This document shows, piece after piece, positions 5,038 through 55,618 of a stretch of DNA of 59,092 bases. Every line of letters starts with the position of its first letter. Position 1 is the stretch's first letter. The stretch is from Oscillospiraceae bacterium (GTDB taxonomy: Bacteria > Bacillota > Clostridia > Oscillospirales > Ruminococcaceae). A model generated the notes under the pieces. That model was not told the origin of the DNA, did no database searches, and worked only from the letters and a program-made list of their open reading frames with translations. The translations under genes and the position numbers were made by a program. Location: the NCBI GenBank assembly GCA_017462785.1, contig JAFTQJ010000053.1, forward strand, positions 1 through 59,092, given 5' to 3'.

Positions 5038-6591
5038 ATGATGAAGATTCGAATACCGAAGAAACATGTTGCAGCAGGACTTGCAGCGATCCTGATGGTC
5101 AATGGCTATCAGCTCAATGCAGCCATTGCGGAAACAGTGACCGAGTCCGATACAACGGAAATGACCTCGGTCAGCACAACAGCACAGACAGAGGAATCCG
5201 AAGCAGAGTCAGATAACCTCAGCAGCATCACGATCGTGCATACTGCCGAGATCACCGAAGAAAATTATGAGGCAGCCGACTGGTGGAAAGCAGATCTGGA
5301 TGAATACAGCGACAGCTTTTCCCTCGTCAGCTATGAAGCAGTCACAGGCACCGGCACCGCCGAGCCTGTGGATCTGGACGGGGACGGCATACCGGATGAT
5401 CCGGAGCTGACTCCGGAAGAAGCGGTTCTGATCGCACAGGGACAGAGCAGCGGCATGCTGGTGTCCTCCGGTCAGGCAAGTTCCGCTGTTTCAAGCGTGG
5501 AGAACGGCATGTTTGCGTTCACGACCTATGGCTATGGTCATGGCGTCGGTCTGAGCCAGAATGGTGCCAACTTCTACGCCAAATACGCCGGCTGGAACTA
5601 TCAGGACATTCTGTTCCACTACTACCCCGGTACGGCACTGATGAACACCGGCACAGCGGAAACAGAGATCGTCACCGTCAAGGGCGTTCCCGGCAATGTG
5701 CTGATGCAGGTTGCAGAGATCGTCAACCTTGAGATCGGTCCTTCCTTCCATGAGGAGGCGATCAAGGCACAGGCTGTTGCGATCTATTCCTACATGAAGT
5801 ATTACGGCAATGATGCCCACGACCTCAAGGGCAAGAAGAACCCCTCCCAGAAGATCATTGATGCCTGTGCATCCGTGCTGGGTGAGGCTCTGTACTACAA
5901 CGGCAACTATGCAATGACCATGTTCTATGCATCCAGCGGCGGCATTACTGCAAACTGCTATGATGTATTCTCTGCTGATCTGCCGTATCTGAGAAGTGTT
6001 TCCAGTGATTTTGATGCATCCTACGATCCGCATTACGGTGATGTGGTGTATTACACTGTGGATGAGATCCGCAGAAAGCTCCAGAATGCATACGGCATCA
6101 CGCTTTCTCCCAATCCTGCCAACTGGATCCGGATCGTGGAGGGCAACGGCGGCTATGTCAACAAGGTCGTAATCGACGATCAGGTCACAGTACGAGGCAA
6201 TTCCTTCCGTGCGGTGATGGATCTCAAATCCCCGAAATTTACTTATATCTGCTCCGTATCCGGAGTAGAACTGCCGCAGGAAACCACCCCTGCAGTGACC
6301 GAACCTCCGGCAACTGTACCGGTGCAGACCGCACCGCCCGTGGTGAATACAACACCCACACAGGAAACGCCCAAGGAGACCTCTGCACCTGCCTCCACCG
6401 CAGCATCTGCGGCATCGACCACCACTACTACTACAACGACCGTGGTCAAGGATACCGAAACCGTGCAGAATACTGAAACAGAACCCCAGCCCGCACCGAC
6501 CGAGGCACCTGCTGAAACCGCAGCACCTGCGGTAACGGATGCCCCTGCTGAGGAACCTGTCATTGACGATGATTCCGAGATTTTCGGCTGA
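5038..6591 (+). CDS. Secreted SpoIID/LytB-domain protein with permuted motif order
   Basis: 517 residues. The ATG at 5038 follows GATGGAGT and starts a signal peptide (MMKIRIPKKHVAAGLAA). A calcium-binding-like DLDGDGIPDD segment lies near residue 110. GHGVGLSQNGA (about 166) and YYPGT (about 194) come before the SpoIID core EIVNLEIGPSFHEEAIKAQA (about 227) and YASSGG (about 296). In classical SpoIID the GHGVGMSQ block follows the core, so this looks circularly permuted. SpoIID-family members are lytic transglycosylases acting on denuded glycan. The last 100 residues are a Pro/Thr-rich linker or wall-spanning tail. It may share a transcript with the sortase, 113 bp upstream. Confidence 0.82.
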   Translation: MMKIRIPKKHVAAGLAAILMVNGYQLNAAIAETVTESDTTEMTSVSTTAQTEESEAESDNLSSITIVHTAEITEENYEAADWWKADLDEYSDSFSLVSYEAVTGTGTAEPVDLDGDGIPDDPELTPEEAVLIAQGQSSGMLVSSGQASSAVSSVENGMFAFTTYGYGHGVGLSQNGANFYAKYAGWNYQDILFHYYPGTALMNTGTAETEIVTVKGVPGNVLMQVAEIVNLEIGPSFHEEAIKAQAVAIYSYMKYYGNDAHDLKGKKNPSQKIIDACASVLGEALYYNGNYAMTMFYASSGGITANCYDVFSADLPYLRSVSSDFDASYDPHYGDVVYYTVDEIRRKLQNAYGITLSPNPANWIRIVEGNGGYVNKVVIDDQVTVRGNSFRAVMDLKSPKFTYICSVSGVELPQETTPAVTEPPATVPVQTAPPVVNTTPTQETPKETSAPASTAASAASTTTTTTTTVVKDTETVQNTETEPQPAPTEAPAETAAPAVTDAPAEEPVIDDDSEIFG

Positions 6592-51277: not shown

Positions 51278-53053
51278 ATGAAAGCAAGAACTTACAAAAA
51301 GACAATTTCCTACATCATCAGCGTATCGCTCGGAACGGGCTGTTACCGTCATATCCGGGTGTCCGGCAAGAAAACACTGGACGATCTCGCATTTTATATC
51401 CTTGATGCGTTTGATTTTGAAATGGATCACCTGTATTCATTCTTCATGGACAATTGCTGGTGGTCGGATGACGACAGTTACAACAGCCCCTATGACGAAG
51501 AACCGCCCTATGCTGACCGGATCAAGCTGGCAAAGCTGAACCTGCAAAAAGGACAGGCATTCAAGTTTCTGTTTGATTATGGCGATGAATGGCGGTTTCA
51601 GTGCAAGGTGTTACAGGTGTTGGACGAGGAAACTTCCGGTGCACTGATCGTTCGTGCAAAGGGAGAGGCACCGCCGCAGTATCCGGTCTATGATGAGGAT
51701 ATGGATGAGGATTACTGTCCTGATTCATATGATGAGGATATGGATGAGGATTACTGTCCTGATTCAGCGGATGAAATGCCGGAAAGACCGCAGATCCAAA
51801 TGACAAGCCGCTGTGATGTGCAGGGTTCCGGTTCTGATGACGAACTGGAGTTCAAGCCCGAACCTCCGGAGATTCCGGACGAACTGATGGAGGCAGCATT
51901 CCGCTTCCGCAGTGAAAAGCTCTGGAAAAAGCTCTATGATACGGATATTTTTGCAGTCAAGCTCTCCAATGGTGAGATCGGGTATTGCTGTGTCATGGGC
52001 AATCTGGGCGAATGTCTTGCACTGTCATTGTACATTGGTGAGGAGGGATTGTTTTCTCTGCGATTCATCAACGAAATCGCACCGCAAATGAACTCCTCTT
52101 TTGCAATTTTGCTGGAACAGAACTGTCTGCAGCTTGGGCTGGACAACAAGTCCGACATGATGGATGAAACGATCCCGCCGGTACAGGCATACGCCAAAGC
52201 ACATGGGATCAGTCTGAAAGGTCGGAAGTCCTATCCCAATTTCATGAAGTTTCAGCGATTCTGTGCACCGTGGTACATTACCGCACAGGATGACTGCAAA
52301 TATCTGCTGGAGGCACTTCATGCGGCACATGAGGTCGCACAGCAATTGAAGGCTACAAACAAGGTGAAGCTCGGTCTGGGGGATGCACCGGAACGGATTC
52401 CACTTCTCACCCCCAATGGCAGCGGGTACAAGTGGACATTGATGGCACTGCCGGAAATGCCGCAGGACGTTTATCCTGCACCGCTCTTTGAGAACGCCCT
52501 GCTGCTCACGCAATTGCAAACGCTCAAGAAACAAGGCACATGGGAATGTGCACATTTCATCACAAGTCACCCATATCCGGATCATGGAATGCAGAAGCTT
52601 GTGTATCCGTCGCTGATGCTGATTGGTGACAGGGGCAAGAAGAAGGAAATGCAGTTTGAAAATGCCGGTTATTATCCTGAAATTGCGTCCGATCTGCTCA
52701 ATGAGCTGGCGATCAGAATCGTGCAGTATGGAACTTGCCCGAAAACCATTCTGACAAAATCGCATCGTTCCCTTGCACTGCTTTCCGATTTCTGCGAGAA
52801 GTGCGGCATTACCCTGAAATTGACGGAATCGTTCACCATGATCGACCAAATGCTTGACAAGGCATTGGCGAACAATTCTGCTCCGTTCGGAGACGAACGG
52901 CTGCTTGAGCTGTTTGCAATGCTCGACGCTCTGAGCGTGGCTGAGCTTCGCACCATGCCGCAGGAGATGATGGCAGATCTCTCCGAACTGATCGGCGAAG
53001 GCATTCTGCCGGCTACGCTGGAGAAGAAGCTGAAGGCGATTATGGGGAAGTGA
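51278..53053 (+). CDS. Plasmid pRiA4b ORF-3-like protein with long C-terminal extension
   Basis: 591 residues after TTGGAGGTG. Residues 1-135 match the pRiA4b ORF-3/TnpR-like domain found as a passenger on mobile elements (YIISVSLGTGCYRHIRVSGK, HLYSFFMDNCWWSDD, FLFDYGDEWRFQCKVL). An acidic hinge contains two copies of DEDMDEDYCPDS (from about 138). The remaining 390 residues are not recognised; they are soluble and mostly helical by eye. The family's function is unknown. It follows tmRNA and precedes an IS remnant, fitting a mobile region. Confidence 0.8.
   Translation: MKARTYKKTISYIISVSLGTGCYRHIRVSGKKTLDDLAFYILDAFDFEMDHLYSFFMDNCWWSDDDSYNSPYDEEPPYADRIKLAKLNLQKGQAFKFLFDYGDEWRFQCKVLQVLDEETSGALIVRAKGEAPPQYPVYDEDMDEDYCPDSYDEDMDEDYCPDSADEMPERPQIQMTSRCDVQGSGSDDELEFKPEPPEIPDELMEAAFRFRSEKLWKKLYDTDIFAVKLSNGEIGYCCVMGNLGECLALSLYIGEEGLFSLRFINEIAPQMNSSFAILLEQNCLQLGLDNKSDMMDETIPPVQAYAKAHGISLKGRKSYPNFMKFQRFCAPWYITAQDDCKYLLEALHAAHEVAQQLKATNKVKLGLGDAPERIPLLTPNGSGYKWTLMALPEMPQDVYPAPLFENALLLTQLQTLKKQGTWECAHFITSHPYPDHGMQKLVYPSLMLIGDRGKKKEMQFENAGYYPEIASDLLNELAIRIVQYGTCPKTILTKSHRSLALLSDFCEKCGITLKLTESFTMIDQMLDKALANNSAPFGDERLLELFAMLDALSVAELRTMPQEMMADLSELIGEGILPATLEKKLKAIMGK
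51689..51766 (+). repeat. Perfect 39-bp tandem duplication in frame
   Basis: 51689-51727 and 51728-51766 are identical 39-bp copies, each encoding YDEDMDEDYCPDS. Identity at all positions suggests a very recent duplication. Confidence 0.95.
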
Positions 53054-53176
53054 TGGATGGGGGTTGTTTTGTATCCGTGCTTGAATCGCATGATTTGATT
53101 AAAAATAGATGTAACGTAACTATTCAGTCCTCCCCAAACATCCACAAAGTTGAAAACAAAATTCCGATATAAAAAA

Positions 53177-53366
53177 CCTGATTCCGCAAAGTTCACAACT
53201 CCCAAACCACTAAGAAGCAACATGATTACAGAATTCTTGCCTCTTTTTATAATGCTCTGCGACTTCATCCACTGGGTGAAGTGGAATATGACTTATAAAC
53301 GAGGCTTTTATTCTATATAATCTGGTCTTTTCGGTTGTTTATCAATTTAAGTTTTGCGGAATCAGG
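53177..53366. mobile_element. IS remnant bounded by 14-bp inverted repeats
   Basis: CCTGATTCCGCAAA (53177-53190) and its exact reverse complement TTTGCGGAATCAGG (53353-53366) enclose 162 bp. On the plus strand near 53245-53295 the frame reads SFYNALRLHPLGEVEYDL then a stop, recalling the C-terminus of IS3-type transposases (FYN...R.H..LG). It is best read as a deletion derivative of an insertion sequence. The rest of the 53054-53398 gap holds no gene I can support. Confidence 0.6.
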
Positions 53367-53398
53367 CTTTACAAACAATTTTAAAGTTAAGAAACAAC

Positions 53399-53427
53399 TT
53401 GACAATAGAAAGAAAACGGTGTATAAT
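53399..53427 (+). promoter_or_regulatory. Consensus promoter of the SIR2-like cluster
   Basis: TTGACA (53399-53404), 17 bp, TATAAT (53422-53427), followed at once by AAGGAGG (53431-53437). It lies 33 bp past the inverted repeat of the IS remnant. Confidence 0.88.
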
Positions 53428-53528
53428 CAAAAGGAGGAATGTCGTTTTTCATCAGAAAGGGAGGGATGCTGATGCACAATTAACTCATTTGTTTTATCGA
53501 TGTACGAAGATCAACTATTGCAGGAGGA

Positions 53529-53820
53529 GTGCACAGCTGTGTCGTACTTATCATTGCAGTGTTTGTGTCTAAAGGACATCGTGGTCTTGGTATGTTGCTC
53601 GCAGTTACAAACTTTGTACTTCCGGACGCATTGCCGTTGGTGGATGCTGAACAAGTCTGTAGGTTTTATGGAATCTGAAACTGGTCAGAACATCATTAAG
53701 GTTGGTAAGGCTGTTGGTCAGATCGGCGTAGCCTTATTCCAAGCCAATGCAAATCGAAAAGCTAACCAGTCTTCGTATAATAATTATGATTCCTATGACT
53801 ACTATGATGATGAATATTAA
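53529..53820 (+). pseudogene. Possible frameshifted small membrane protein
   Basis: One frame (53529-53678) reads VVLIIAVFVSKGHRGLGMLL, AVTNFVLPDALPLVDAEQ, a natural-looking membrane segment, but has no ATG; AGGAGG at 53522-53527 is too close to its GTG. Another frame, from an ATG at 53668, gives ESETGQNIIKVGKAVGQIGV and an acidic Tyr/Asp-rich end to 53820. The two may be halves of one gene joined by an indel, or two tiny genes. An ATG at 53500 has no ribosome site. Function unknown. Confidence 0.35.
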
Positions 53821-53833
53821 AGAGGAGAATTGT

Positions 53834-54115
53834 ATGAGTATTAAAGCAATTGGTGTTATTACAAAATTCAACACATCGGGAAAGATCTGCATCAGAACGG
53901 AGAATACCTGCTATCATAATGGAAAGGCGTATAATTTCGCAATATCGGAAGATGCAGCTTTTGAGATTAAAGCTTTGTCACCCGACATGGAATTTGGATT
54001 TAACGAATCATTGGCTGTATTTTTGAGCATGATCGCACTGCAGGGAGCTAAGGCTATATTTGAGTTCGACAAGGACCTCAAAAAAATTGTTGCTGTGGAG
54101 ATCCATAATGAGTGA
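53834..54115 (+). CDS. Small protein coupled to the SIR2-like gene
   Basis: 93 residues, unrecognised. AGAGGAG lies 7 bp before the ATG at 53834. The N-terminal half looks like a small beta-barrel (KAIGVITKFNTSGKICIRTE) and the rest is mixed (GFNESLAVFLSMIALQGAKA). No membrane segment or catalytic motif. It overlaps the SIR2-like start by 8 bp, so the two are made together. A regulator, sensor or partner of the SIR2-like protein is inferred from context only. Confidence 0.75.
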   Translation: MSIKAIGVITKFNTSGKICIRTENTCYHNGKAYNFAISEDAAFEIKALSPDMEFGFNESLAVFLSMIALQGAKAIFEFDKDLKKIVAVEIHNE

Positions 54116-55463
54116 TAGAACTGTTATCTTTTTTGGTGCAGGCACTACAACAGCCTGTGATATGCCGGCAACAGTCAAACAAGGAAAACTGTTTTCTTCG
54201 TTTTTCTTTAATAATGATACGGTATTCAGAGAATGGATCCACAACAATGTGAAGATACTAAAGGATGAAGATATAGACGTACTTACCGCACTAAAACAAG
54301 AACCACAAATACAAAAGCTCAAACAGTTTGTCAACGACACATTTACATCGGATTCCTTTGACATGATGTCTTTCTATAATCTTGTGGACATGTCGATCAC
54401 CGAAAGACGTGGATTTCGTTGCGGTGAAAAGGTTTATTCGGTTGATGAAATACAAAATTTTCGCAGCATCTTGCTGGTTCTTCTGCAAACGCTTTTTGGT
54501 TTGCTTGAAAACAATATACTCCGGGATAAGGAACAGGAATTCAACAAACTGAAGCGTTTTTTCAAAGCAATCGCCAAGAAAGAGCTGAACAAACGAAGAA
54601 TGCAGTACATCAATGATTCTGTGGATTTACAGTCACGCAAATTCTTATTTACAGATGTGGAGTATATCAGTCTCAACTGGGATGTATTGGTACTTTGGGC
54701 AATGATGCTCGCACACAAGGAACTAAACAACAGTAACAGTAATTATATTTCTGACAAATATGGAATTTCTAAGCTGAAGGTATTCAACGAGTTTTTTGCA
54801 TATCTGAACTCAAGCGATACCGGCAGTGAAAAGAATAAGGATTGGTTCCCGTACAGTCAGCCTGTTGCTTTCAGACTGAATGATACAGAACACCCATCGG
54901 ATAAGCGGGTGGTTCTATTTCCCACCTATTTCCCGCATGGGCAGACACATTGGCTGGAATGTCCGATATGCGGTAAGCTCACAATGTACCTTGACAAACA
55001 ATTCAGGGTATATTCACAAAATTTTGCAATGAGTCCCAAACGGCAGTACCGGTGTTCTCATTGTGATCAGCGGCTTAATCTTGAAAATTCGGCAATGCTG
55101 CTTCAAACAAGTTATAAGGTAAAATCGCCATATAACGAGGAGATTCAGCGTTCTATGAGAATCGCAATCAACAACGCAAAGCGATTAGTTTTCATCGGGT
55201 ATTCTCTGCCGAATGATGATATTGAATACAGAAGTATTTTCAGAATCAGCAGCAGCGAGCCGAAAAAAGTATATGTTGTACTTTATCAAAGCGGGGCACC
55301 TAACAAATTCATACCCGCTAAGGAAGTTTTAAAGAATAATAATGGTAACAATGAGGAGATTAAACGATACTGCGACATCTTTGGTGAAGAAAATGTACAG
55401 GTGAATTATGCTGGCTTTCCTGATGCATCGGATAAAGTCTTGGAAATCCTGAAACAGGAATAA
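54108..55463 (+). CDS. SIR2-like NAD-binding protein with zinc ribbon (putative defence effector)
   Basis: 451 residues. TVIFFGAGTTTACDMP is the NAD-binding loop of the SIR2 fold. SLNWDVLVLWAM (N190, D192) matches the TxNxD-type motif. FPHGQTHWLECPICG places a catalytic-type His (H277) before a zinc ribbon (CPIC about 285; CSHC about 315), and RLVFIGYSLPNDDIEYRSIF is the late Rossmann strand. This is the SIR2_2 class found in many anti-phage systems, where it destroys NAD+, though some members may do other chemistry. A helical insert (about 100-180) is unassigned. AT-rich codon use and an adjacent IS remnant suggest transfer. Confidence 0.82.
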   Translation: MSDRTVIFFGAGTTTACDMPATVKQGKLFSSFFFNNDTVFREWIHNNVKILKDEDIDVLTALKQEPQIQKLKQFVNDTFTSDSFDMMSFYNLVDMSITERRGFRCGEKVYSVDEIQNFRSILLVLLQTLFGLLENNILRDKEQEFNKLKRFFKAIAKKELNKRRMQYINDSVDLQSRKFLFTDVEYISLNWDVLVLWAMMLAHKELNNSNSNYISDKYGISKLKVFNEFFAYLNSSDTGSEKNKDWFPYSQPVAFRLNDTEHPSDKRVVLFPTYFPHGQTHWLECPICGKLTMYLDKQFRVYSQNFAMSPKRQYRCSHCDQRLNLENSAMLLQTSYKVKSPYNEEIQRSMRIAINNAKRLVFIGYSLPNDDIEYRSIFRISSSEPKKVYVVLYQSGAPNKFIPAKEVLKNNNGNNEEIKRYCDIFGEENVQVNYAGFPDASDKVLEILKQE

Positions 55464-55586
55464 TTCCCCTCTCACAGCATCTGCGAAATTGGATGTAAAA
55501 AAGGTGCAAGGTTAAAATTGCTCCTCCAAGCCCAAAGATACAGCAATCCATATCTGAAATCAATATAATATTTGAAAGTGCAAAAT

Positions 55587-55618
55587 CGGCAGGGGAGTGA
55601 TCCTCTGCCGGTTTTTTC
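55587..55618 (+). terminator. Terminator of the SIR2-like cluster
   Basis: CGGCAGGGGA (55587-55596) pairs with TCCTCTGCCG (55601-55610), followed by GTTTTTT. Confidence 0.88.

What the first reader, a model, noticed from the sequence alone, without database searches (positions are those of the whole stretch)
53399..55618. Promoter-driven cluster ending in a 93-residue protein translationally coupled to a SIR2-like zinc-ribbon protein
A consensus promoter, a possibly broken membrane gene, an unrecognised 93-residue protein and a SIR2_2-type protein sit between an IS remnant and a terminator, with AT-rich codon use. The SIR2 motifs (GAG loop, NxD at 190-192, His277 before CPIC/CSHC) are readable. 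SIR2-like NADases are effectors in several anti-phage systems, but I know of none with this small overlapping partner. It could be an undescribed two- or three-gene defence unit.
Basis: partly seen in the sequence, partly recalled or inferred. Interest (0 to 1): 0.72.

Follow-up and report, generated by a model that had tools for sequence, protein, structure and literature searches.

The report
SIR2 enzyme with coupled small partner
A bacterium carries a two-gene unit, a very small protein made together with an enzyme of an NAD-cutting family, whose distant relatives sit among anti-virus genes, so it is probably an undescribed kind of bacterial virus defence.

Summary
A perfect-consensus promoter, a 93-aa gene (53834-54115), a 451-aa SIR2-type gene (54108-55463) overlapping it by 8 bp, and a strong terminator form a low-GC stretch. 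As a group these small proteins and the 93-aa one are more alike than control ORFs (0-2 of 300 as good), though single comparisons are weak. Each of the four has defence-type genes nearby. In a 19-row SIR2 clade every deep branch has a partnered row (5 of 19); Sporolactobacillus and Clostridium-type rows lack the partner, which fits one gain and two losses. Papers I could search describe no such pair. Most likely it is a two-gene NAD-depleting defence module with a small regulatory/sensor subunit. Structure prediction was off; no activity is shown.

The parts
53399..53427 (+). sigma-70 consensus promoter TTGACA-17-TATAAT
   Evidence: 12 of 12 matches
53834..54115 (+). 93-aa small partner protein (P0001)
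   Evidence: four divergent counterparts directly upstream of SIR2 in L021, L023, L034, L080
54108..54115 (+). 8-bp overlap ATGAGTGA of the small gene's end and the SIR2 start (likely translational coupling)
   Evidence: spacing of -8, -4, -26, 0 and -1 bp in the five pairs
54108..55463 (+). 451-aa SIR2-type protein with zinc ribbon (P0002)
54135..54143 (+). GAG loop of the NAD-binding fold (residues 10-12)
   Evidence: G10 and G12 invariant in 24 of 24 rows, A11 in 90% or more
54675..54683 (+). N190-W191-D192 motif
   Evidence: invariant in 24 of 24 rows
54936..54938 (+). His277, presumed catalytic
   Evidence: invariant in 24 of 24 rows
54960..55064 (+). zinc ribbon CPIC (285-288) ... CSHC (316-319)
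   Evidence: four Cys invariant in 24 of 24 rows
55582..55615 (+). intrinsic terminator hairpin with a T run at its 3' side
   Evidence: -23.9 kcal/mol, z -6.15
53114..53370 (.). insertion-sequence end remnant bounding the unit on the left
53472..53820 (+). frame-shifted small ORFs (hydrophobic stretch plus a 50-residue tail); probably not part of the module
   Evidence: no convincing homologue in 61 genomes (best other E 0.008); no counterpart seen upstream of the related pairs

Best explanation
It is a two-gene, horizontally acquired anti-phage module. Gene 2 is a SIR2-type NAD+-cleaving effector that keeps a zinc ribbon. Gene 1 is a small, fast-diverging cognate subunit, encoded first and coupled to the effector so that the two are made together. 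In the resting cell the small subunit and SIR2 form a complex that is off; a phage signal read by the complex, most likely through the small subunit, switches SIR2 on, NAD+ is destroyed and the infection aborts. Shown: operon anatomy, conserved catalytic residues, a coupled small gene on each deep branch of the clade, defence-type genes near the four related pairs. Inferred: complex formation, NADase activity, the phage trigger, horizontal origin, and the small subunit's role as sensor/regulator.
For: Anatomy. Catalytic and Cys residues invariant in 24 of 24 rows. Seven of 10 wider relatives given pass Pfam SIR2_2. The best solved-structure match of the 9-row profile is the KomC SIR2 NADase, E 0.0007, through three short collinear pieces at the GAG, N-x-D and GYSL motifs. 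A coupled small gene is found in 5 of 19 clade rows, on every deep branch. The small proteins are alike as a group: sum of z exceeded by 1, 0, 0, 0 and 2 of 300 control ORFs. SIR2-only genomes show no second copy: 10 searched, 0 at E<0.01, one marginal match at 0.04. Defence-type genes lie near all four related pairs, in neighbours I picked: L080 has AbiEi, AbiH, DRT reverse transcriptase and a PLD-like PDC-S05 match; L034 has Mrr/PDC-S02 and a DruM-type methylase; L021 has NERD+UvrD; L023 has an Mrr nuclease. The distribution is sporadic: 1 of 247, 3 of 394, 7 of 391 (E 1e-5) and 2 of 398 genomes (profile, E 1e-20), window included.
Against: No biochemical or phage data. P0002 is below the Pfam SIR2_2 cut-off (15.4 against 24.5 bits); of 6 clade relatives scanned, 5 give no SIR2_2 match and L022 one at E 0.17. 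PADLOC SIR2 models match P0002 at E 0.006, L023 at 0.0006, L080 at 7.5e-6 and the other 4 scanned not at all. The KomC match rests on short pieces, none significant alone. The window's own neighbours are not clear defence genes. In a leave-one-out HMM test P0001 ranks only 15 of 427, and its local-alignment z with L021, L023 and L034 is 1.0-1.8. Twelve Clostridium-type rows keep SIR2 without the partner; 11 of them look, by eye, like ordinary chromosomal loci, which suggests another or independent role there. No phage or plasmid record matched the L021 or L080 SIR2 at E 1e-5; P0002 matched only two distant Rhizobium plasmids.
Confidence: 0.55

Rival explanations
1. Toxin-antitoxin form: SIR2 is a constitutively active NAD-destroying toxin and the small protein is simply its neutralising antitoxin, encoded first; defence is a by-product of antitoxin loss.
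For: Order small-first and abutting or overlapping genes. A small antidote protein next to a defence toxin is known, AS1 of Sofic (PMC12249575, abstract and outline seen).
Against: Fourteen of 19 clade rows keep a full-length SIR2 ORF without the partner, so the enzyme need not be lethal without it.
Confidence: 0.25
2. The SIR2 protein works alone; the 93-aa gene is an unrelated passenger and the small genes in the other four loci are chance neighbours.
For: The small proteins are only 15-26% identical to P0001. P0001 ranks only 15 of 427 in the leave-one-out HMM test. Partner-less SIR2 genes exist.
Against: Five of five deep branches have a 93-135-aa gene at -26 to 0 bp from SIR2, and the group similarity is matched by at most 2 of 300 controls.
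Confidence: 0.15
3. A sirtuin-like protein-modifying enzyme (deacylase or ADP-ribosyl transferase) with a small adaptor, with a physiological rather than defence role, as the stable Clostridium loci might suggest.
For: The Cys pairs directly after the His match canonical sirtuins: the profile's PHG...CPxCGK stretch is the part that weakly matches SIRT1, HST2 and other deacetylases (E 0.2-0.9). Clostridium loci are syntenic beside spore-protein-like, heavy-metal-domain-like or thiW-like genes (names by eye).
Against: No PF02146 match for P0002 up to E 1. The solved protein closest to the profile is described as an NADase. All four partnered relatives have defence-type genes nearby.
Confidence: 0.15

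Closest known systems
SIR2_2-type NADase effectors (PF13289) of SIR2-HerA/Nezha, SPARSA and DSR1/DSR2
   Same: GAG loop, N-x-D, catalytic His, GYS motif (motif equivalence recalled for these systems); SIR2-type effector in a defence context
   Different: Partner is a 93-135-aa protein, not HerA or pAgo, and there is no long C-terminal sensor; it keeps a CxxC-CxxC zinc ribbon after the His (absence of the ribbon in the others is recalled, not tested)
Kongming (KomA, KomB, KomC)
   Same: KomC, a SIR2 NADase of 264 aa, is the best solved-structure match to the profile
   Different: No KomA- or KomB-like gene recognised next to it; 451-538 aa in the window and the partnered relatives, with zinc ribbon and inserts; a different small partner
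Sofic with AS1
   Same: A small co-located protein controlling a defence toxin
   Different: A FIC enzyme, not SIR2; the small gene is downstream, not upstream
Thoeris ThsA/ThsB
   Same: SIR2 NADase switched on by a partner's signal
   Different: No SLOG match in P0002 and no TIR gene recognised next to it

Membership tests
Pfam SIR2_2 (PF13289) | gathering score 24.5 bits | tested here: not met
   P0002 15.4 bits, E 0.02; 0 of 6 clade relatives pass; 7 of 10 wider relatives given do pass
SIR2 superfamily NAD-binding fold | GAG loop, N-x-D, catalytic His, GxS-type motif | tested here: met
   invariant or nearly so in 24 of 24 rows; collinear with KomC motifs
SIR2 superfamily NAD-binding fold | three-dimensional fold | not testable with these tools
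   structure prediction not available
Canonical sirtuin deacylase (PF02146) | Pfam match | tested here: not met
   no match for P0002 up to E 1; of 10 wider relatives only L018 passes
SIR2-HerA (Nezha) | adjacent HerA ATPase | tested here: not met
   neighbours scanned are P0001, the 106-aa ORF, DUF7309, WYL, GNAT, hydrolase and HTH genes; no ATPase match
SPARSA | short pAgo partner and APAZ | tested here: not met
   no pAgo or APAZ match for P0001 or P0002
DSR1/DSR2 | single long protein, SIR2 plus C-terminal sensor (recalled) | tested here: not met
   451 aa, ending about 85 residues after the GYS motif; PADLOC gave only weak SIR2 and PD-T7-4 matches
Thoeris | ThsB TIR partner and SLOG domain | tested here: not met
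   no TIR or SLOG match in P0002 or the neighbours scanned
Kongming | KomA and KomB genes | tested here: not met
   neighbours scanned are DUF7309, P0001, WYL, GNAT, hydrolase and HTH genes
Abortive-infection defence system | phage protection with NAD+ loss | not testable with these tools
   needs experiment
Abortive-infection defence system | relatives cluster with defence genes | tested here: met
   4 of 4 partnered relatives, in picked neighbours; not the window itself; SIR2-only rows not scanned alike

The most novel reading that the evidence does not exclude
A new, ancient two-gene immune module: a zinc-ribbon SIR2 NADase gated by a dedicated small, possibly OB-like protein that is the infection sensor, spread sparsely over Bacillota and Cloacimonadota, with the small sensor lost in lineages where the SIR2 became a resident gene.
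Probability: 0.4. Interest if true: 0.75.

Novelty: new variant of a known kind. Interest (0 to 1): 0.62.

Why it matters
In several known systems SIR2 NADases are the effector, and what gates them sets one system apart from another. A module reduced to the enzyme plus a roughly 100-residue partner would be a very small gated SIR2 system, convenient for studying how gating works. The pair does not reach the Pfam or NCBIfam cut-offs and matches PADLOC only weakly, so annotation by these libraries would miss such units.

Tried and rejected
Rejected: (a) a P0001 match in G176 (E 0.0078): it lies antisense inside what look like transporter genes, with stops in the reading frame. (b) Weak P0001 matches at E 0.007-0.08 in three other genus genomes and a second one in the own genome: short or with stops, and no SIR2 in those fetched loci. 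(c) A membrane ORF as third component: no convincing homologue and no counterpart seen in the related pairs. (d) Integration by a repeat of the tmRNA end: no second exact copy of its 3' end in the window down to 12 bases. (e) Site comparison in the genus: 8 of 38 genomes, the own one included, have the WYL gene at E 1e-40. I fetched the region in 6 of the other 7 (not G1009). Only G1013 shows it near tmRNA; there it is inverted and without the DUF7309 or SIR2 genes. Contig ends limit the others.

Led nowhere: P0001 in phages, plasmids, viral contigs and genome contigs; P0002, L021, L080 or profile searches of viral contigs, phages and plasmids (exceptions: two distant Rhizobium hits and one distant viral-contig locus); PDB searches with single proteins or the small-protein profile; a second SIR2-profile draw in the order of G1286, 1 of 38 genomes, G1286 itself.

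Limits: control ORFs are mechanical ORFs of 80-150 aa, not all genes. Neighbours of the 12 Clostridium-type and 2 Sporolactobacillus rows were read by eye; only the L012 patatin gene and one L022 ORF were family-scanned. The Chou-Fasman strings are crude; they give two N-terminal strands in 4 of 5 and no clear OB order, so 'OB-like' is a guess by eye.

Full report
What is there. The unit lies at 53399-55615: a 12-of-12 sigma-70 promoter, a 93-aa ORF with a good ribosome-binding site, a 451-aa ORF starting 8 bp inside it, and a hairpin terminator. The pair is 39.2% GC in a 50.8% window; its third-position GC is about 42% against 58-66% in the DUF7309, smpB and WYL genes nearby. Left of it is the end of an insertion sequence, also found as two inverted copies on contig C32. 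Further left is the DUF7309/PRiA4/DUF6930 gene and then tmRNA. In one genus mate (G1013, L072) tmRNA (5444-5815) is followed at 6509 by the WYL gene in the other orientation, without the DUF7309 or SIR2 genes, so this stretch varies; that is one genome only.

The SIR2 protein. P0002 is only a sub-threshold Pfam SIR2_2 match (E 0.02), and none of 6 clade relatives passes. The wider family supports the assignment. Aligned with 8 relatives and then with 23, N190, D192, H277 and the four Cys are invariant; so are G10, G12, G278 and S366. Seven of 10 wider relatives pass the SIR2_2 cut-off, and a Rhizobium plasmid relative is annotated 'SIR2 family protein'. The 9-row profile picks the KomC SIR2 NADase first among solved structures (E 0.0007), through three short pieces in the right order: GAG loop, N-x-D, GYSL; no piece is significant alone. 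The fold itself could not be modelled.

The small protein. P0001 has no match up to E 1 in Pfam, PADLOC, NCBIfam or PHROGs, none in phages or plasmids, and no relative in the viral or genome contig scans, which see close relatives only. In 38 genus genomes the window's own is the only strong match; three others have weak ones, the best E 0.007 over 34 residues. The SIR2 alignment A2 gave 27 loci from genome contigs. Mapping them showed a small gene ending at or inside the SIR2 start in L021 (126 aa, Massilibacillus MAG), L023 (110 aa, Cloacimonetes MAG) and L034 (122-127 aa depending on the start, Peptococcaceae). A search of 398 phylum genomes with profile A3 added L080 in G1286 (135 aa). Spacings are -8 (window), -4, -26, 0 and -1 bp. 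By eye the proteins share a start like '(T/A)IGxI' (TKGTI in L080), a hydrophobic segment in the last half and a strand-like end.

Is that homology? Single pairs are weak (end-gap-free z: P0001-L023 4.7, with L021 2.5, with L034 1.7; L023-L034 0.1; local z of P0001 1.0-1.8). Leave-one-out HMMs rank the members 15, 1, 1, 3 and 1 (P0001, L023, L021, L034, L080) among 418-434 scored ORFs. Summed over the other four, the alignment z is 9.3, 12.5, 12.7, 7.1 and 7.5, reached by 1, 0, 0, 0 and 2 of 300 control ORFs. I read this as probable common descent, not proof. A profile of the five found no second copy in the 5 partnered genomes and none in 10 SIR2-only genomes, apart from one match at E 0.04 in G1439 (the five themselves match by construction).

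Phylogeny. In a 27-row tree the window, L021, L022, L023, L024, L034, L080 and 12 Clostridium-type rows form one clade (100/99). The partner is in 5 of these 19 rows. Every deep branch (window; L023; L080; L021 with L022/L024; L034 with the 12) has a partnered row; the 14 without are two Sporolactobacillus and the 12 Clostridium-type rows. The tree needs 3 changes, which may be one gain and two losses (13 of 500 label shuffles as low). The window and L023 rows have long branches and the fork between the window and the rest is not fully supported (94/95), so their exact places are unsure.

Context. PADLOC and Pfam scans of neighbours that I picked gave: L080/L082 AbiEi, AbiH, UG5-nitrilase reverse transcriptase (DRT) and a PLD-like PDC-S05 match; L034 Mrr_cat/PDC-S02 and a DruM-type C5 methylase; L021 NERD plus UvrD helicase; L023 Mrr_cat. 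Some neighbours in the same calls had no match. The window's own neighbours gave WYL and HTH regulators and one weak PDC-M16B match (E 0.007) to the hydrolase. In Clostridium the gene sits in stable, non-defence-looking surroundings (by eye), except L012, where a patatin phospholipase gene matching PADLOC phospholipase effectors precedes it.

Mechanism. The best reading is an NAD-depleting abortive-infection pair. The partner diverges at least as fast as the enzyme (window against L080: 15% small, and 29% SIR2), as sensors often do, and SIR2 without the partner persists in two groups, so I favour sensor/regulator over a plain antitoxin. This step is inference.

Known systems. SIR2 systems listed in PMC10952713 (passages seen: Thoeris, SPARSA, DSR1, DSR2, Sir2-HerA, Avast V, PD-T7-2) and PMC12948488 (passages: Nezha, Thoeris, Kongming) do not include such a pair; nor did the passages seen of PMC11514479 and PMC12322248 or the abstract and outline of PMC11559045. 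Searches of the held library: (listings). Only open-licence papers are held, so it may be described elsewhere.

Noticed in passing
L037, L038, L039, L041, L042 (upstream of SIR2); partly L018, L040, L043: Another SIR2_2 subfamily in a repeated gene set: a SocA/Panacea-like protein (below the Pfam cut-off in L037), a roughly 150-aa protein, a roughly 446-aa protein without Pfam or PADLOC match in L037, then SIR2; an 8-bp overlap before SIR2 in L037, L038 and L041. Looks like a second undescribed SIR2 module.
   Followed up: partly
L012:516-1451: Patatin-like phospholipase gene (PADLOC phospholipase effector match) ending 19 bp before a SIR2 of the same clade.
   Followed up: partly
window 51278-53053: 591-aa PRiA4_ORF3 + DUF7309 + DUF6930 protein just downstream of tmRNA; not found near tmRNA in the genus mate G1013.
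   Followed up: no
window 53472-53820: Frame-shifted small ORFs with a hydrophobic stretch and a Tyr/Asp-rich tail; no convincing homologue found.
   Followed up: partly
L021:2923-6060 and L022:3-9215: In two genomes the SIR2 gene lies near flagellin and other flagellar-looking genes (by eye), perhaps a variable spot.
   Followed up: no
L011:1165-1848: Truncated second copy of the SIR2 gene in G578, 35% identical to the window's over residues 186-306.
   Followed up: no
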